IMG/VR virus record: IMGVR_UViG_3300008517_000150
Coordinates: 1-28,478 of that record
Source of the DNA: a virus
Strand: one strand, 5' to 3'
DNA length: 28,478 nt
Part shown: one piece after another, positions 3,286 through 26,717 of the stretch
Position numbering within the stretch: position 1 is the first letter of the stretch
Layout of the letters: every line of letters starts with the position of its first letter
Program-made: the position numbers and the translations under genes
Notes under the pieces: generated by a model
What the model was told of the DNA's origin: nothing
Seen by the model: the letters and a program-made list of their open reading frames with translations, nothing else
Databases searched by the model: none

Positions 3286-3543
3286 TTAATCTGGATGGCT
3301 AAATTCACCAGGTAAATGGCCAGACCCACCGGGGAGCTCTTTTTTCTCCCCTTGCATCTTTGCTCTACTTTTGACGATGAGCTGTCCTTCATCGATCCAT
3401 GCACTCTTGATAATCTTGCCATCCTTTAATCCTTTAGGTTGAATTTCATATTGAATACAACCGTTCATATAAATAATCTTAGCAACAACCATACCTTCAA
3501 GTCCTGTAACCGTATCTTTTACTTTATCGCCTATTTTAATCAT
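3286..3543 (-). CDS. Small SH3-like beta-barrel phage protein
   Basis: An 85-residue protein opening KIGDKVKDTVTGLEGMVVAK, the pattern of small phage proteins with an SH3/KOW-like fold: a start that forms a barrel, a GLEG turn, then alternating strands to about residue 57. The last 25 residues are polar and probably disordered. AGGAGG precedes the ATG. Related proteins are common in phage early regions; their role is unknown. Confidence 0.7.
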   Translation of the reverse strand: MIKIGDKVKDTVTGLEGMVVAKIIYMNGCIQYEIQPKGLKDGKIIKSAWIDEGQLIVKSRAKMQGEKKELPGGSGHLPGEFSHPD

Positions 3544-3564
3544 CGTTTTACCTCCTTTCTTATT

Positions 3565-3930
3565 TTATTTATATTCCTCAATATCCCTCCTAACAGATTG
3601 ATAGATCTGATTTAGCTCATGTCTAAAATAAGAGATCTCTTCCTTTTCATCCATACTTTCTTGATTTAATTCCTCTAACCTATTCTTCAAATTAAGGTAT
3701 TTGGCAAATAGATTCATGAACTTCCTCATAAAAAGCCCGGCTACCTCTTCATTACTACGCCTTCTGATATCTATTATGTTCCTATGCCTTCCCTCAATCT
3801 CTTTCATGTAAAGCTTTAATTTTCCTGCAGTATTACCCACTTTTTTATCTTCGTAATATACTATTTCATCACCGAACATCTCTTCAATTTCCTTCCAAGC
3901 CTTTTCGTAATCACATTTCAAGGACGTCAT
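3565..3930 (-). CDS. Helical, charged phage protein
   Basis: The 121-residue product is strongly charged and mostly helical, with heptad-like stretches in residues 60-118 (NLFAKYLNLKNRLEELNQES...). The ATG at 3930 overlaps the end of the upstream gene by 20 bases; GGGAGGAG inside that gene lies about 13 bases upstream, rather far, so coupling may help. I recognise no family. Confidence 0.6.
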   Translation of the reverse strand: MTSLKCDYEKAWKEIEEMFGDEIVYYEDKKVGNTAGKLKLYMKEIEGRHRNIIDIRRRSNEEVAGLFMRKFMNLFAKYLNLKNRLEELNQESMDEKEEISYFRHELNQIYQSVRRDIEEYK

Positions 3931-4165
3931 ATTTCTTAATTAACTCCTCCCTATATTTATCAAATTCCTCCTGGCTCATTCTCCAGTTATTCATAATCTT
4001 TCTAAGTTGAGTCTCTGATAGTGGCCAAGCCAAAACGTCCCCTCTGCATAAATAAACATATTGGGTCCCCATACTTATAAATCCCTTATGAAGTTTTAGC
4101 TTCGGATAGGTGAGGGTCTTATCAGTAGTAAAAATTTGTCCAGGTTCAACTTCATTTACCTTCAA
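3911..4165 (-). CDS. Conserved phage-type protein, TTG start
   Basis: An 84-residue protein whose first half (VNEVEPGQIFTTDKTLTYPKLKL) reads as a small beta domain and second half as helices. The start is TTG at 4165, chosen because a perfect AGGAGG lies eight bases upstream and no ATG fits. The 3' end overlaps the next gene. Function unknown. Confidence 0.65.
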   Translation of the reverse strand: MKVNEVEPGQIFTTDKTLTYPKLKLHKGFISMGTQYVYLCRGDVLAWPLSETQLRKIMNNWRMSQEEFDKYREELIKKYDVLEM

Positions 4166-4191
4166 TTAAAAAACCTCCTGATCGCTATTTT

Positions 4192-4446
4192 TTAAAATAT
4201 TTTTTCACATATCTTGTCAATTCTTTCTACAACCGATATTAAAATAGAACCTATACGGGTTCCTCTCATGGCTACCACAAGTTCACGATAAGCCTTCCTC
4301 AACTGCCATCTCTGGAATGAAAAAGTATTCCTCATCACTATAATTTGCTCCTCACAAAGTGATACTGCCCTAATATCTACTTCTTCGTTTAGCCATTGTA
4401 AAATGTCTTTATATTCTTCGTCACTTACCGGTCTATGTTTTCTCAT
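4192..4446 (-). CDS. Small helical protein of unknown function
   Basis: An 84-residue protein with a basic middle (SFQRWQLRKAYRELVVAMRG) and predicted helices throughout. AGGAGG lies nine bases before the ATG. No enzymatic motif is seen; the basic helix could bind nucleic acid. Confidence 0.6.
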   Translation of the reverse strand: MRKHRPVSDEEYKDILQWLNEEVDIRAVSLCEEQIIVMRNTFSFQRWQLRKAYRELVVAMRGTRIGSILISVVERIDKICEKIF

Positions 4447-4459
4447 CTATTACTTCCTC

Positions 4460-5302
4460 CTAAGTTTCTATCGTGGGATCATATTCATCCTTTTCTAATC
4501 CAAAGGTCCAGGCTTTTGCCTCTTGCACACTACACATATCAGGAGGCACCTTGAGAAAATATCGTTTGCCAGTTGAAGAATCTTTAACCTGTAAAAATGC
4601 TATGCCATCTGTTAAGATTATGATTTTATCCTCTCTGTCATTAAAATACCCTCTTGGAATACTACCATAAAAATCAGGAGGATACTGAAAGGTGGCATCT
4701 CCAAGAATGATATATTGAATTTTATTCATCTCAAATCCTTCTCTTATATAGTTCCCATAGCCAAATTTCCTTAATGCCTGCTCCCTTAATTCTAGATTTT
4801 CTGTTCCTTCTATATCCCCAAATGTTATAGGATAATCCATCTCCAGTTTTATTTTCGTCTCTATATCCTGGAGATACCGTTCCAGATAAGTTTTAAATCC
4901 ACGAGAAATAATACTATCTCTTCCCAAACTCAAACTCTCCCCAAGAATTAATCTTATATCCAGAAAGTTACTAAATAAGCTCATATCCTCGGAGAGGATT
5001 TCAGCTAAGTTCCTCTTGTTTAGAATTCCTAGAGTTATATCCCAGGGAAAAAATATTATGGTATGAATTCTACTTGCCACATTTATCGGAGGTATCCCTA
5101 TATGATAACTACATAATCTTTCCTCTCCCACCTCAAAATATAATTCAATAACATAAGGATTAAAATGTGATGATCTTAAATCCGATTCACTTACTCTCCC
5201 CTCCAGTATGTAGTAGACCCCATATTCGGTATGCCTTACATTCTCCCCAGTTTTCCATGAATTTAATCTAGTCCTCAACGAATTTGATATAATCTGTATC
5301 AT
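4460..5302 (-). CDS. DUF6745-like protein
   Basis: About 280 residues. The C-terminus reads YFLKVPPDMCSVQEAKAWTF followed by GL, EYDP and ET, resembling from memory the ending of DUF6745 proteins. The N-terminal half is a mixed alpha/beta domain I do not recognise. The start is uncertain: the ATG at 5302 has AGGAG ten bases upstream; an alternative start lies at 5335, and both overlap the upstream gene. DUF6745-type genes often sit beside a gene for an RQREY-type protein, exactly as here, so the two may work together. Biochemical role unknown. Confidence 0.6.
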   Translation of the reverse strand: MIQIISNSLRTRLNSWKTGENVRHTEYGVYYILEGRVSESDLRSSHFNPYVIELYFEVGEERLCSYHIGIPPINVASRIHTIIFFPWDITLGILNKRNLAEILSEDMSLFSNFLDIRLILGESLSLGRDSIISRGFKTYLERYLQDIETKIKLEMDYPITFGDIEGTENLELREQALRKFGYGNYIREGFEMNKIQYIILGDATFQYPPDFYGSIPRGYFNDREDKIIILTDGIAFLQVKDSSTGKRYFLKVPPDMCSVQEAKAWTFGLEKDEYDPTIET

Positions 5303-6608: not shown

Positions 6609-7056
6609 ATTTATTCCTCCTTTTCTTAGAAATAAGCATATTCTAATTAGCTTAAAAGCACTTCATCTGTAGCATTATCTCTCTATTCTTTTTTTTCCTA
6701 TATCATTCTGTTTAGAGCAGATTAAAAATAACGTCATCTCAACAGCTCAGTTCGTCATTGTCAGCCTCTCATTGTCAGCCTCTCTCCACCATTTTCATTT
6801 CCTTATCCCTTCCCTATATTATTCCGTTACAGTAGCTCAGACTGGATTATGAGGAGGCACAAGACCAGCAGTAAATATTTTATTACATGCAATATCTAAC
6901 ATTCCTTATAACCCGGCCCCTCAGTTAGAAAGTCAAAAAGCAACAAGTTATTAATGATATGCTAATTCACATTTACATCCTAACATTTTCAACTTTCCAT
7001 TTTTTTATCGGAGATGAGCAATCATACTCTAGCCTAAGGGCACATTGCTTTTAGCA
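6609..7056 (-). repeat. Non-coding stretch with hairpin units and a 14-bp tandem repeat
   Basis: No gene fits here. The unit at 7011-7063 folds as a 7-bp stem (GAGATGA/TCATCTC) with one bulged T and two GC pairs, the same design as the array on the other side of the transposase-like gene; its right arm overlaps that gene's last codons and stop. A weaker unit spans 6928-6997 (GAAAGT...ACTTTC) and a longer one about 6851-6924. At 6757-6784 a 14-bp sequence is repeated in tandem exactly. TCTCTCCACCAT occurs both at about 6781 and 7060, the latter at the end of the transposase-like gene, so part of that end was copied. Possible relics of insertion-element ends. Confidence 0.6.
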
Positions 7057-7989
7057 TCATCTCTCCACCATCTTTATCTCTTCGAATAATTCATTCAAGA
7101 ATCGTGTTTCTATAAACTTTTTGCTGTAATTATTTATCTTGCCTTTACTCCAATCCGGGTGTTTATTGCCATAAAAAATCTTCATATCATCATATAGCTT
7201 TCGCCAGATCGGAGTATTCTGTCGTATAACCTGTTCGGCAAAATGAAATAATGCCCTCTTCAATTGGTGGTTAAATCTCTGATTCCCCTTCTTGGCTACC
7301 ATTCCGGCATAATGTCTCAGGGCATACTTATCGCTAAACCGGGAAGCCCTTTTAATACCGGTTATCAGGCCACCGGCTACTGCAGGTCCGACTCCCTTTA
7401 TCCCCTTTAGATAATCCTTCCAGACAGGATGTTTCCTTACTTCTGCTTGTAATAGTTTAGTTTGAAGTTCGAAATCTTCTTCTAGGGCCTGGATAACTGC
7501 CTCCTTTTTCTCCACCGCCTCTTTCTCGTATCCGTTCAGATTCACCAATTCTAATCTATTCTTTAGAGCGAACAGCCTTAATTTAGTCGCCACCATAATC
7601 TTTTCAGTATCAGCACGCTCTTTGAATATTATGCTGATCCGGGCAGTCATTTCGTCTAGCTCTTTGAATTCATAAAAATCTTCAGGGTGCTCCTTAATTA
7701 AATGTTTTACGGCAAAAGCGTCGTTCTTGTCTGTTTTTGGTAGCTTCAGGTTCTCCCGGCACTCCTTAGTTCTGATTCCCGGCAGTGTAAATACCTGATG
7801 GCCCCTTCTCCTAGCTAAGAGTTTAAAGGAGTCTCCGCCACCTTCCTCGAAATAGAAGGAATTTTCCTTTTCAATCTTATCCAGAAATTTGGAGAATTCT
7901 CCGACGCTCGGGGCCATGGTTTTGGATTTCTCATTCGCGAGATCAAAGACCTTTAATTCCTTTTTAATGGACCATTTAACAAAATACAT
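7057..7989 (-). CDS. IS110-family transposase-like protein lacking the catalytic-serine segment
   Basis: 310 residues with both IS110 domains. The RuvC-like DEDD domain is at the N-terminus: D16 in KVFDLANEK, E48/E49 in FYFEEGGG, and D87 and D90 in LPKTDKNDAFAVKHL. The Transposase_20-like domain contains GIKGVGPAVAGGLITGI (about 195-211) and RHYAGMVAKKGNQRF. In typical members about 15 residues with an SG motif, holding the nucleophilic serine, lie between YAGL and KxGN; here that segment is absent and no serine replaces it. Typical IS110 enzymes recombine DNA guided by a bridge RNA encoded in the element's non-coding end. AGGTGA precedes the ATG. Hairpin arrays lie on both sides. It may be an inactive relic, a lineage variant or a repurposed protein. 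Confidence 0.85.
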   Translation of the reverse strand: MYFVKWSIKKELKVFDLANEKSKTMAPSVGEFSKFLDKIEKENSFYFEEGGGDSFKLLARRRGHQVFTLPGIRTKECRENLKLPKTDKNDAFAVKHLIKEHPEDFYEFKELDEMTARISIIFKERADTEKIMVATKLRLFALKNRLELVNLNGYEKEAVEKKEAVIQALEEDFELQTKLLQAEVRKHPVWKDYLKGIKGVGPAVAGGLITGIKRASRFSDKYALRHYAGMVAKKGNQRFNHQLKRALFHFAEQVIRQNTPIWRKLYDDMKIFYGNKHPDWSKGKINNYSKKFIETRFLNELFEEIKMVER

Positions 7990-8014
7990 TTTAAATCACC
8001 TTTCTTTCTTTAGC

Positions 8015-8856
8015 GAGGCAGAAGCAATCTATAAATAGCTTTTTCGTATTCTTACGCTAGCATTCTGTCTGCAGTATTTTATTCGGAAGCAATTCTTGAT
8101 CAGCACATTAAACATTATCGCTTTAACTTTCCGTTTTGTCAGTCAGAGACATATTTCTATTAGTAATCCCTTCGAATATAATGCTATAATAGTTCTCCTT
8201 CCCTTTTTTTCTAATATCTAAGATAGACAAAAGGCAATTTTGGCCTAAACGAATAAGTCATTATAATTTTAGCTCTTTGCCTGTCCCAGCTTTTATTAAG
8301 GCAGAAGCAAACATTCTTTAGTCTATCGATATCGAATTAGTAGCATTCTGCCCACAGTATCTTCTTCTCGGAAGTAACCTCGCTAATAGCATGTTAAGCA
8401 TCTTCCTTTTAGCTTTCCGAGGAGATTTAGGCAGAGACATAAGGCTTTTATCTATCTTCGGAATAAAATGTTTTTCAGTACTCCGCCTCCCCATCCTTAG
8501 AGACGGACAGAGGCATTCGCCAACTAAATAAATCAATACCATCCTAGCTCTCTGCCCATCTCTTTGATCTTTCTGTCATCTAATAATAGAAGCATATATT
8601 TAGTAGCAATTCTCCAGTCTACAGTTCCCTATTAGCGTTCTATCTCTCAATTTTCTTTTTTTTGGGAGGCAAAAGCAGATATATTACAAGCTTTTTTATA
8701 TCACCATTCCTTTAGCATTCTGCCTCACGATCCTCTACCGGAAGCATCTTTATTGTAGCAATTTAAGCAATTTTATTATAGCTTTCCGGTCCACTAGGAC
8801 AGAGACATGCCTCTTCTATTAGCTCTTTAGACATAACATACCAATAGTACTCCGCC
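8015..8856 (-). repeat. Array of 12 hairpin units in A-B-C-D order, upstream of the IS110-like gene
   Basis: Units lie at 8015-8070, 8084-8133, 8144-8197, 8226-8285, 8300-8352, 8367-8421, 8430-8487, 8500-8562, 8586-8643, 8666-8726, 8737-8790 and 8797-8856. On the minus strand most share one plan: a 5-10 bp stem, one bulged base, GC (or AC), then T, a variable 25-40-nt interior, GC (or GT), and the closing stem. Stems fall into types: A GGCAGAA/TTCTGCC, B CGGAA/TTCCG, C GGCGGAG/CTCTGCC, D GGGCAGAG/CTCTGTCC, plus one E (ATAGAA/TTCTAT). Order is A-B-C-D, A-B-C-D, E, A-B-C; A to B is 67-71 nt and B to C 60-63 nt each time. The third unit is weak. No gene is supported inside. Confidence 0.8.
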
Positions 8857-8868
8857 CCATTCTCATTT

Positions 8869-8940
8869 CTATCTTCTTTTTAATATTAAATATGTTACTA
8901 TTGCCACCACTACTACAATTCCTATGAACCAATACCACAT
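8869..8940 (-). CDS. Very small membrane protein (23 aa)
   Basis: An ATG at 8940 with GAGAGGTG upstream opens a 23-codon frame: MWYWFIGI, a run of valine, isoleucine and alanine, then a basic KRR tail. It is almost entirely one transmembrane helix with a positive C-terminus. Shine-Dalgarno sequence and composition support translation, but the size makes this less certain. It lies between the hairpin array and the next small gene. Confidence 0.55.
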   Translation of the reverse strand: MWYWFIGIVVVVAIVTYLILKRR

Positions 8941-8955
8941 CTTTGTTCACCTCTC

Positions 8956-9252
8956 TTATTTCTCCGTCTTTAGCCGGCTTTTTAATAACTGCATTCTCTC
9001 TGATACTCTATTCATTTGTTCTCTAATTTCGCAGAGTCTTTTATATTCATTTTCAATCCATCCTTCGGAAGCCTTCTTGGCAAGATCCTTTTCCTCTTGC
9101 ACTTCCATCGGGGAACCAACTAGCTCGCTATTTACTTCAGATATAATTATATTCAGTTCTTTAGCCCGATCTAATACGGAAAAAACGACTTTTGATATAT
9201 CCCCAGTAGTCGCTGGTTTCTTACTTTCTCCACTGCTTAATTCTCCTGTCAT
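8956..9252 (-). CDS. Small coiled-coil protein
   Basis: A 98-residue protein: the first 18 residues are flexible (SSGESKKPATTGD), then two long helices follow with heptad character (IENEYKRLCEIREQMNRVSE). AGGAGG lies nine bases before the ATG. It resembles small coiled-coil accessory proteins of phages; function unknown. Confidence 0.65.
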   Translation of the reverse strand: MTGELSSGESKKPATTGDISKVVFSVLDRAKELNIIISEVNSELVGSPMEVQEEKDLAKKASEGWIENEYKRLCEIREQMNRVSERMQLLKSRLKTEK

Positions 9253-15889: not shown

Positions 15890-16576
15890 TTATTCATCCT
15901 CCACCTCAACATCCATTTTTCTTGGCTTGAATGCATTCGGGTTAAATGGAATAACGTGTTCAAAAGTACCATCTAAATAATGAAGAATTACAGTGCCATA
16001 AACACCGCTTGGAGGACCAATGAACTCTGCCGTTTGTACGTATTTGAATTTCCTGTCTTGTTTTGCCAACTTACAATATTTCCCTTCCCACCATCTTTTA
16101 TATCTTTCCCGTACTGTTTCATCTCTTCTCATTCTTTTAATCCCCCCTAATACATAAACTTTGATTCTTTTAATTCCCCATTCTTTGGCCTGTTCATAAT
16201 TTTCTTTATAGACATCAAGATTCCAGATATCGAAATGAAAATCTTTCTCAGTAAATGGCCCCGTGTCTTCTACACTAAAATATCCCATTCCTTCAATATA
16301 TATCTTTTGACCAAGTTTGAGAGGACTTTTAACTACCCATTTACCATCAATCAGATCCACATTAATAGCTACAATACCTTCCCTTATAGGGGTCCCAGTT
16401 GCAGTTTTGCCATCCCGCCATTTATCAGCAATACAATTTTGGTGATTACTATAAGCCGTCGAAGTCATAATAAAGTATTTTGACTCTTCGGCTTCTATCG
16501 GGATTGGCAGGGTATAAATAGCATAGGTTATTGATAGTAGCATGCCTATAAGCACTATATAAATCAATCTATTCAT
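15890..16576 (-). CDS. Secreted 3D-domain protein fused to a small RWW-GKYC domain
   Basis: 228 residues from the ATG at 16576 (GGTGG upstream). Residues 1-20 are a signal peptide or membrane anchor (LIYIVLIGMLLSITYAIYT). A 3D (triple-aspartate) domain follows, with TSTAYS, TATGTPI and aspartates near 74 (INVDL), 104 (EDTGP) and 116 (HFDIW). Such domains resemble MltA and act on peptidoglycan outside the membrane. From about residue 148 the protein reads RERYKRWWEGKYCKL...IGPPSGVYG...HYLDGT, clearly related to the separate gene at 22218-22463. The join lies beside a G6 run (plus 16142-16147): with one G fewer, the 3D protein would end in TGA overlapping an ATG for the second part. Confidence 0.75.
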   Translation of the reverse strand: MNRLIYIVLIGMLLSITYAIYTLPIPIEAEESKYFIMTSTAYSNHQNCIADKWRDGKTATGTPIREGIVAINVDLIDGKWVVKSPLKLGQKIYIEGMGYFSVEDTGPFTEKDFHFDIWNLDVYKENYEQAKEWGIKRIKVYVLGGIKRMRRDETVRERYKRWWEGKYCKLAKQDRKFKYVQTAEFIGPPSGVYGTVILHYLDGTFEHVIPFNPNAFKPRKMDVEVEDE

Positions 16577-16578
16577 TG

Positions 16579-16671
16579 CTACCACCGCAGTTTGCATCCC
16601 CGTCCAAAATTATCGAGGATCCTTATTATAAAATCAGACATTACCTTAAATATCTGGATTGTTTTAATCAT
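16579..16671 (-). CDS. Possible 30-codon ORF
   Basis: An ATG at 16671, with AAGGG ten bases upstream, opens 30 codons ending just before the 3D-domain gene. The peptide is amphipathic and basic. Nothing but the weak ribosome binding site and tight fit supports it; it may be only a leader. Confidence 0.25.
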   Translation of the reverse strand: MIKTIQIFKVMSDFIIRILDNFGRGCKLRW

Positions 16672-23168: not shown

Positions 23169-23552
23169 TTAAATGTTCCATACCCGGAATCCACAACGTC
23201 GTATTGCGTTTCTGATCTCCTGTGTGCATTTACGCCCCAAATTCTTCATTTTCAATAGATTAAATAGGCCACTTTCGAGTATATCCCCTACTGTATTTAT
23301 ACCAGATTTCCTTAGGCAGTTATCTGCTCTGAGGGATAGTTCCAGTCTTTCAATGTCTGATTCCACAGTCACTGGGCCCTCCCCTTTAAACCTCTTGCTT
23401 AGTGCGATTCTCCTTAAAGCCTTCGCTTCGATCTGACGGATCCTTTCTCTAGTTACTCCGAACATTTCACCTATTTCTTCTAGTGTATGATCGGCTCTCA
23501 GTTGTAATATCTTTTTTTCTCGCTCTCTAATTTTAATTTGTGTCATTCCCAT
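23169..23552 (-). CDS. Fusion of sigma-70 region 4 and RNA polymerase alpha C-terminal domain
   Basis: 127 residues built of two host-RNA-polymerase domains. Residues 7-52 are sigma region 4: [20 protein letters not shown] followed by EAKALRRI is the -35-binding helix-turn-helix of sigma-70. Residues 65-121 are an alpha-[23 protein letters not shown], then TVGDIL and [19 protein letters not shown], with the NLG/KC turn that touches DNA. Sigma regions 2 and 3 and the alpha N-terminal domain are missing, so it cannot open promoters alone. It could compete for or add to host polymerase at phage promoters. GGAGGTGA precedes the ATG; a structured GC-rich leader lies upstream. Confidence 0.88.
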
Positions 23553-26369: not shown

Positions 26370-26535
26370 GTGTTTTATCGAAAAATACTCATATTTATCA
26401 ATATTCTCCAAATATTTTATCATTTTGTTAGTTTTCTCTTATTTAAGCCATCCGGGAAAATTTTGGCCTTCAAATTTCGCTTTTAAGCCCCCTCTTTTGC
26501 CCCTTCCTAGCCAACCCTACCAGCCCCTTTCAAAT

Positions 26536-26717
26536 AATGCCGTGTGGGCGCTCGTGGTGCATCGGCAAAAAAACGATGAAACCCTTATAAACAAAGGCTT
26601 TCATCGATTCAGCGAAAAATCATCCCAAAAAATGCCTTGTGGACGCTCTGGTCGAATCGGATATAATCACTGAAACCCTTATAAATAAAGCGTTACATTG
26701 ATTATCGGCAAAAAAAG
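26536..26717. repeat. Two tandem ~95-bp repeats in a 300-base gap
   Basis: Copies at about 26536-26625 and 26631-26717 share, in order, AATGCC.TGTGG, CGCTC, TGGT, ATCGG, GAAACCCTTATAAA and AAAG, with a 94-95-base offset. Each contains an imperfect hairpin whose arms flank CCCTTATAAA: CGATGAAA/TTTCATCG in the first, AATCACTGAAA/TTACATTGATT in the second. They fill the gap between the right-hand genes and the main promoter. They may be protein-binding sites, an attachment region or a structured RNA; I cannot decide. The rest of the gap (26425-26535) shows no gene. Confidence 0.6.

What the first reader, a model, noticed from the sequence alone, without database searches (positions are those of the whole stretch)
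8015..8856. Twelve-unit hairpin array with conserved bulged base next to an IS110-like gene
Most units fold on the minus strand as stem, one unpaired base, two base pairs (GC/GC or AC/GT), then a variable 25-40-nt interior. Stem sequences differ between units but still pair (for example GGCAGAA/TTCTGCC, CGGAA/TTCCG, GAGATGGGCAGAG/CTCTGTCCGTCTC), the mark of selection for structure. The order A-B-C-D repeats, with A to B always 67-71 nt and B to C 60-63 nt. Constant stems with variable interiors upstream of a recombinase whose relatives use bridge RNAs suggests, but does not prove, an array of guide-like RNAs or structured recombination sites.
Basis: partly seen in the sequence, partly recalled or inferred. 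Interest (0 to 1): 0.85.

Follow-up and report, generated by a model that had tools for sequence, protein, structure and literature searches.

The report
Phage stem-loop TIGR guide-RNA array
The hairpins are a phage's array of about sixteen two-part RNA guides for a neighbouring TIGR-Tas protein whose DNA-cutting site looks disabled, so the phage may use them to aim a protein at chosen DNA without cutting it.

Summary
The array is real. It is a stem-loop TIGR array, a guide-RNA architecture described in 2025 (PMC12045711), not an IS110 bridge RNA or a set of recombination sites. On the minus strand each unit reads: stem, one bulged base, box C (GCTA/ACTA), spacer A (9 nt), box D', loop, box C', spacer B (9-12 nt), box D (TGC/TGT), stem. 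Twelve units lie upstream of the gene as reported; three clear units and one doubtful unit lie downstream. The "IS110-like" protein is a Tas protein: its best solved match by sequence and by fold is TasR (9mty; E 3e-13, Z 22.1). Its RuvC domain has Lys where relatives have the first catalytic Asp, so it is predicted to be nuclease-dead. Stem covariation is strong, and the G-U bias points to minus-strand RNA. Between two phages about 80% identical here, some guide pairs are kept and others replaced inside conserved stems. Units repeat in A-B-C-D blocks, which suggests block duplication followed by guide rewriting. No natural target could be shown. A relative (L067) carries three guide units inside its own tasR reading frame.

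The parts
7057..7989 (-). tasR-like gene, 310 aa: RuvC-fold domain (about 1-107) with Lys5 in place of the first catalytic Asp, plus Nop domain (about 109-310)
8016..8070 (-). stem-loop tigRNA unit A1
8081..8136 (-). stem-loop tigRNA unit B1
8141..8202 (-). stem-loop tigRNA unit C1 (9/12-nt spacers)
8226..8282 (-). stem-loop tigRNA unit D1
8299..8353 (-). stem-loop tigRNA unit A2
8366..8422 (-). stem-loop tigRNA unit B2 (box D reads TAC; 9/10-nt spacers; missed by the strict grammar)
8429..8488 (-). stem-loop tigRNA unit C2 (inner boxes degenerate)
8505..8557 (-). stem-loop tigRNA unit D2
8584..8645 (-). stem-loop tigRNA unit E (both spacers identical in L002)
8667..8725 (-). stem-loop tigRNA unit A3
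8736..8791 (-). stem-loop tigRNA unit B3 (both spacers identical in L002)
8797..8857 (-). stem-loop tigRNA unit C3 (9/12-nt spacers)
7010..7064 (-). downstream unit F; overlaps the end of the gene; spacers kept in L002 except one base
6932..6993 (-). downstream unit G
6861..6920 (-). downstream unit H, doubtful: outer grammar only, not matched by the covariance model
   Evidence: absent
6628..6682 (-). downstream unit I

Best explanation
This is a TIGR-Tas locus of the stem-loop kind in a tailed phage. The array is transcribed on the minus strand with the tasR-like gene (inferred). It is cut into single hairpins, each an RNA with two spacers of 9 nt (9/12 nt in C-type units) held between box C/D pairs (anatomy shown; cutting inferred from the published stem-loop system). 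Two Tas protomers bind one such RNA, and its two spacers pair with opposite strands of adjacent DNA (inferred from the solved TasR complex). Because Lys replaces the first RuvC Asp, the complex should bind and bend its targets without cutting them, acting as a programmable block, repressor or architectural factor (inferred). The array grew by duplication of a four-unit block, and guides were rewritten within conserved stems, boxes and loops (pattern shown; process inferred).
For: Protein: best PDB hit by sequence is 9mty, the TasR structure (E 3.3e-13). NCBIfam TIGR_Tas_endo gives 9e-22 (78 bits) against IS110 1.8e-12 (47 bits). AlphaFold model pLDDT 92.9; fold Z 22.1 over 271 residues to TasR, against 17.8 over 281 to IS621. 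Of the homologues fetched with a KG[IV]GP-type motif, the three examined closely (L016, L023, L024) have 36-nt dual-repeat TIGR arrays beside the gene, and in the wider set 26 of 38 Tas-like loci (own records and the IS110 row left out; some duplicates; some contigs end near the gene) have an 8-mer repeated at least five times at 26-130-nt steps. RNA: boxes and spacers seen unit by unit. Covariation. Minus-strand sense over 28 window and L002 units: 154 Watson-Crick, 24 G-U, 4 A-C, 14 other, so the selected structure is RNA on the gene's own strand. All model matches in window, L002's record and L067 lie on the gene's strand; a model built without L002 finds 12 of 13 of its units at E up to 0.033 and, apart from copies of its training units, nothing below E 0.2 in 66 loci. 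Dead RuvC: YFVKW in window and L002 against YAIDW, YAVDW and YSIDW in L067, L023 and L035, with E49, D87 and D90 kept. Guides: of 11 unit pairs compared with L002, E and B3 are identical, D1 and F differ at 1 of 18 spacer bases, B1, C1 and C3 at 4-5 of 18-21, and A1, A3 and D2 at 11-12 of 18 and C2 at 12 of 21; stems are 84-85% identical and loops of equal length 82%.
Against: The protein scores below the curated NCBIfam cut-off (78 against 100 bits), so it is a divergent Tas. No expression, processing or binding data exist here. No guide target was shown: self-targeting is at background except one 17-of-18 match, and exact scans of IMG/VR for guides E and F gave 3 and 10 stretches, two of the three for E being one phage. 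Spacers were cut out by eye; some units lack good inner boxes (C2, A3, H), and the inner boxes themselves are only 77-79% identical between window and L002, lower than the stems. A single Asp-to-Lys change predicts but does not prove loss of cutting. Nuclease-dead TasR with stem arrays is described for a CPR clade with large Nop insertions, which this protein lacks. I set the confidence to leave room for the rival of a still-active TasR.
Confidence: 0.85

Rival explanations
1. A TIGR array whose TasR still cuts, with another acidic residue (for example D16) taking the place of the lost Asp.
For: Three acidic positions are kept (E49, D87, D90); the relative L067 has the full set.
Against: D16 ends the second strand of the model (E12-16), while the Asp of L067, L023 and L035 aligns on the first. 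K5 is kept in both phages.
Confidence: 0.1
2. An IS110 element whose bridge RNA has been multiplied into an array that programs DNA recombination.
For: Pfam Transposase_20 match, and DEDD_Tnp_IS110 below its cut-off; the fold is also close to IS621 (Z 17.8); bridge RNAs share the tandem-guide and box C/D logic (PMC12045711 discussion).
Against: A gap replaces the segment that holds the serine in one IS110 relative. The first catalytic Asp is Lys. Tas models and structures score higher. Units have one loop with two spacers. The genes on both sides are kept in L002. Element ends were not searched for.
Confidence: 0.03
3. The hairpins act as DNA: structured recombination or cruciform sites, comparable to attC, bound by the RuvC-like protein.
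For: Palindromic arms, a conserved bulged base, and a RuvC-like fold (residues 1-107 match Thermus RuvC at Z 8.0, a level the tool calls middling).
Against: Departures from Watson-Crick in the stems are G-U rather than A-C on the minus strand (24 to 4), as expected for RNA. Inner boxes sit at exactly 9 nt from each end in 10 of 16 units. Homologous proteins sit beside RNA-guide arrays.
Confidence: 0.02
4. A large structured phage RNA with no guide role (comparable to giant ornate phage RNAs, recalled).
For: Repeated covarying hairpins in a phage intergenic region; no Rfam match at gathering thresholds.
Against: The unit grammar is that of stem-loop TIGR; units neighbour a Tas gene in three loci; spacers change most between relatives and between units of one type.
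Confidence: 0.01

Closest known systems
TIGR-Tas, stem-loop array type (TasA locus from the Peromyscus leucopus gut; PMC12045711 section 9)
   [quoted passage not shown] 15-16 here).
   Different: Here the effector has a RuvC-fold domain (TasR-like), not a bare Nop domain. Box C reads CUA-like (GCTA) where the solved TasR repeats end in CCA. C-type units have 9/12-nt spacers. The box sequences of the Peromyscus units were not seen (figure).
TasR with inactive RuvC in CPR bacteria (PMC12045711 discussion)
   Same: A RuvC domain predicted inactive, with stem arrays.
   Different: Found in a tailed phage; compact 310-aa protein without large Nop insertions; nearest relative with the same units (L067) keeps the catalytic Asp.
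TaTasR (PDB 9mty), dual-repeat TIGR
   Same: RuvC plus Nop architecture, best sequence and fold match, 9-nt tandem spacers.
   Different: Dual-repeat array with constant edge and loop repeats; active nuclease (D11).
IS110/IS621 bridge RNA recombinases
   Same: Shared Nop-like RNA-binding fold and tandem guide logic.
   Different: Serine segment missing, single-loop units in an array; element ends not searched for.
Box C/D snoRNPs (Nop5, Nop56/58)
   Same: Nop fold (Z 8.9 for 3id5), box C/D-flanked dual guides.
   Different: No K-turn or fibrillarin partner was sought; DNA rather than RNA targeting is expected.

Membership tests
TIGR-Tas | Effector with Tas-type Nop domain | tested here: met
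   caveat: 78 bits against a curated cut-off of 100 in NCBIfam
[quoted passage not shown]
   9/9 in most units, 9/12 in C units, 9/10 in B2; inner boxes exact in 10 of 16 units at each end
TIGR-Tas, stem-loop type | Variable but consistently palindromic stems in place of edge repeats | tested here: met
TIGR-Tas | Array transcribed and processed into Tas-bound tigRNAs | not testable with these tools
   Only indirect: G-U against A-C bias for minus-strand RNA
TIGR-Tas | Tandem spacers direct binding to opposite strands of DNA | not testable with these tools
   Target scans found no convincing natural target
TasR (RuvC-bearing Tas) | N-terminal RuvC fold | tested here: met
   9mty over residues 1-310 (271 aligned), RuvC 4ep5 over 1-107 (Z 8.0)
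TasR, active nuclease | First catalytic Asp (D11 of TaTasR) and further acidic residues | tested here: not met
   K5 in window and L002; E49, D87, D90 kept. That the Asp of L023, L035 and L067 is the counterpart of D11 is inferred
[quoted passage not shown]
   the Nop part is shorter than in L023 and L035
IS110 transposase | Serine in the C-terminal (Tnp) domain | tested here: not met
   the QSG segment of L026, the one IS110 row compared, falls in a gap in window, L002 and L067; that this serine is catalytic is recalled
IS110 element | Mobile element with ends and one two-loop bridge RNA | tested here: inconclusive
   neighbouring genes kept in L002; many single-loop units; ends and a separate bridge RNA were not searched for

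The most novel reading that the evidence does not exclude
TIGR guides are rewritten in place. The array keeps stems, boxes and loops as a scaffold, grows by copying blocks of units, and swaps mainly the 9-nt spacers while a few guide pairs are held fixed. In this phage lineage the effector has become a cutting-dead, RNA-programmed DNA binder. In a relative, guide units sit in frame inside the effector's own gene, so that making guides would destroy the effector's message, a built-in feedback.
Probability: 0.3. Interest if true: 0.8.

Novelty: new member of a known kind. Interest (0 to 1): 0.6.

Why it matters
How TIGR arrays arise, grow and change, and what their natural targets are, were named open questions in the paper that described them. 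This locus and its 80%-identical relative give a direct natural comparison: which guides are held, which are replaced, and that replacement largely spares the frame. Few shared spacers were also seen in all four pairs of dual-repeat relatives that I compared. A natural dead TasR beside an intact-looking relative with the same guide format (L067) also gives a clean pair for testing what non-cutting TIGR systems do.

Tried and rejected
Rfam: no match at gathering thresholds. tRNAs: none. PADLOC: no match. Direct tblastn of the protein in the phage collection: nothing at 1e-3, five weak partial matches at E up to 10. In plasmids, 414 records with weak partial matches; the 15 listed are labelled IS110 or carry no annotation. 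The search for related loci with the protein, its pair alignment or TasR-informed alignments found only the two near copies in viral contigs and nothing in genome contigs. Degenerate DNA patterns of the KG[IV]GP motif worked where that failed. The first structure model, from two sequences, was useless (pLDDT 38.7).

Guide targets. A first scan of G001 with rough spacer borders gave 4 of 15 guides within two mismatches in the expected orientation, against 4 of 90 for mispaired controls (2 and 1 of 15 in two other orientations). With better borders and the array masked, 2 of 15 remained (A3, E), which shuffled guides reach in 8 of 100 sets, so I do not count it. Guide A3 matches 17 of 18 bases with no gap at window 16276-16293 (letters checked). 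A match this good for any guide occurred in 1 of 100 sets of shuffled guides, but it was picked after the fact. No counterpart of that site was found in the G002 fragment. L002's guides against G002: none within two mismatches. The orientation assumed (spacer A followed by the reverse complement of spacer B, gap 0-2) was derived from the reported 8-nt 3' overhangs and the C-5 rule, not read from a figure; the paper states the cut once as 3' of and once as 5' to the fifth-base partner, which leaves some doubt. Exact IMG/VR scans for guides E and F gave chance-like numbers; the two E hits L079 and L080 are the same sequence. Allowing G-U in guide pairing made hits too common to mean anything.

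Counts with rows left out. One search compares 11 of 13 orthologous units (A2, wholly replaced, and B2, of unequal spacer length, left out; loops of unequal length not counted). One search leaves out unit E and the downstream units, and its frame test is circular because types were named from frames; only its spacer result is free of that. One search uses 21 units (15 window, 6 L067; H left out). The 15 window and 6 L067 units match the model by construction; only G002 is a held-out test, where C2 was missed. One search counts only spacers after the GCGAG[CT]C repeat; L025's contig ends early and one of its five entries is empty. Spacer borders were set by eye from the boxes.

Full report
What is there. 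The window is an IMG/VR virus record. A 76-kb record, G001, contains all 28,478 bases of it without a mismatch and carries portal, head morphogenesis and large terminase genes, so this is a tailed phage. The region 8015-8860 holds twelve hairpins on the minus strand, between a small ORF (8956-9252) and the 310-aa "IS110-like" gene (7057-7989), all on the same strand. The grammar behind the hairpins is exceptional: 12 hits in 6991-8870 against a mean of 0.22 in 300 dinucleotide shuffles.

Anatomy of a unit (minus strand). Stem of about 4-14 bp; one bulged base; box C (GCTA, or ACTA in C-type units, with variants); spacer A; box D' (mostly TGN); a loop of 4-13 nt; box C' (mostly NYTA); spacer B; box D (TGC or TGT), whose last two bases pair with the first two of box C; stem. 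In my reading spacers are 9/9 nt in A, B, D, E, F, G and I units except B2 (9/10), and 9/12 in C units. The inner TG falls exactly 9 nt after box C in 10 of 16 units, and at most 3 units share any other offset; the inner NYTA falls exactly 9 nt before box D in 10 of 16.

It is an RNA structure on the gene's strand. On 21 units from two distant loci, 93.3% of stem cells pair, against 72.6% when partners are shuffled; 9 of 10 pairs show changes on both sides; sliding the partners destroys the signal. Over 28 window and L002 units, non-Watson-Crick cells are 24 G-U and 4 A-C on the minus strand, with 14 others; the reverse would be expected for RNA of the plus strand. Orthologous units are not independent, so this ratio should not be read as a probability. 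A covariance model built from window and L067 units finds 12 of 13 units in the held-out relative G002 (E up to 0.033) and, apart from copies of its training units, no match below E 0.2 in 66 loci of 710,596 bases.

What the protein is. Pfam calls it IS110, but the best solved match by sequence is 9mty, the TasR structure (3.3e-13). NCBIfam ranks TIGR_Tas_endo (78 bits, under its cut-off of 100) above IS110 (47 bits, cut-off 140). A degenerate pattern for its KG[IV]GP motif pulled 9 stretches from the IMG/VR collection: its own record, its 90% relative L002/G002, and seven others. L016, L023 and L024 were examined and have 36-nt dual-repeat TIGR arrays next to the gene. A wider pattern gave 52 stretches, of which 40 (both own records and some duplicates included) score below 1e-11 against a profile of the window, L002 and three Tas proteins. 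With 26 of these sequences aligned, AlphaFold gave a confident model (pLDDT 92.9, pTM 0.88), matching TasR along its length (Z 22.1, 271 residues) ahead of TasH (18.9, 191 residues) and IS621 (17.8, 281 residues); residues 1-107 also match RuvC (Z 8.0). In the Nop-domain tree the window, L002 and L067 form one well-supported clade (100/100) on a long stem; its relation to other Tas groups is unresolved.

A natural dead TasR. Window and L002 read YFVKW where L067, L023 and L035 read YAIDW, YAVDW and YSIDW. I take that Asp to be the counterpart of D11, the residue mutated (D11A) to kill TaTasR in PMC12045711; the N-terminus of TaTasR itself was not in my alignment. E49, D87 and D90 remain. Loss of the Asp in a clade whose sister keeps it predicts binding without cutting.

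How it most likely works. Shown here: unit anatomy, RNA-level covariation, Tas identity, loss of the Asp, guide turnover. Taken from PMC12045711 (seen: outline and abstract, parts 1-2 of 12 of the text, sections 8, 9, 10, 23, 24 and 49, and found passages; supplements not seen): stem-loop arrays are expressed and cut into single hairpins bound by the Tas protein, and one RNA sits in a Tas dimer with its two spacers pairing to opposite DNA strands while the DNA turns about 180 degrees. Inferred: this phage uses the complex to occupy chosen DNA sites, to block transcription or replication of a competitor or of the host, or to shape DNA, without cutting it.

How the array changes. Units recur in the order A-B-C-D, A-B-C-D, E, A-B-C. 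Units of one type share stems, boxes and loop style, but their spacers are no more alike than those of different types (0.33 against 0.31). Against L002, about 80% identical here, guide pairs E and B3 are identical and D1 and F differ by one base; B1, C1 and C3 are intermediate (4-5 differences); A1, A3, D2 and C2 are largely replaced inside stems that are 84-85% identical overall; inner boxes are 77-79% identical. A2 is replaced whole. In four pairs of dual-repeat relatives with tas genes 90-94% identical, 2, 1, 0 and 3 spacers are shared out of arrays of 12/8, 11/9, 5/9 and 12/25 counted units. This is what guides tracking moving targets would look like, and it speaks to the paper's open question of how arrays without adaptation genes change.

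What I could not show. No natural target. Self-matches are at background except one, and database scans of two fixed guides gave chance-like numbers. Expression, processing and binding need experiments.

Guides inside the effector gene. L067's six units include three inside the tasR reading frame (3595-4695), at 3712-3768, 3943-4002 and 4024-4080, which coincide with two in-frame protein inserts absent from the window, L002, L023 and L035. L051's TasA frame holds eight in-phase 36-nt units read as 12-residue repeats. A census of the 52 frames for the one repeat GCGAG[CT]C found only L051 with three or more; other repeat sequences were not counted. PMC12045711 places arrays upstream or downstream of the gene, and the terms open reading frame and in-frame do not occur in its main text; I have not seen its supplements.

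Novelty. Stem-loop TIGR arrays are published, so this is a new member of a known kind: divergent in protein (below the curated cut-off), with a predicted dead nuclease in a phage, and with 9/12 units. Whether this very contig is in the paper's table S1 could not be checked. Searches for other papers: (open-licence PMC only); of those listed I read only PMC12045711.

Noticed in passing
L067:3712-3768, 3943-4002, 4024-4080 (+): Three stem-loop tigRNA units lie in frame inside the tasR coding sequence, at protein inserts absent from relatives; units also sit just upstream (3516-3575) and downstream (4712-4768, 4790-4845). Three of the six units share a near-constant loop ([TC]GAC[CT]AAAAGTTCAA).
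   Followed up: partly
L051:1457-1756 (+): Eight in-phase 36-nt dual-repeat TIGR units read in frame within a TasA gene as 12-residue repeats (ERA...); arrays also lie on both sides of the gene.
   Followed up: partly
L016/L022, L017/L020, L025/L048, L031/L054: Pairs of Tas loci with 90-94% identical genes share only 0-3 counted spacers: fast guide turnover in dual-repeat arrays, with a few guides kept.
   Followed up: partly
L055, L056: Nop-like proteins with CxxC pairs and no clear dual-repeat array (at most four copies of an 8-mer); L056 sits on a long branch of the tree. Possibly a further Nop family in viruses.
   Followed up: no
window 23169-23552 (-): 127-aa protein that reads like a sigma-factor region 4 helix-turn-helix followed by a segment resembling the RNA polymerase alpha C-terminal domain (from reading the sequence, no search run).
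   Followed up: no
window 16276-16293: 17 of 18 bases match guide pair A3 with no gap, inside an ORF (15890-16597) of the same phage; weak evidence for self-targeting.
   Followed up: partly
window 26531-26703: Tandem repeat of period 94 (1.8 copies, 78% matches), not examined.
   Followed up: no
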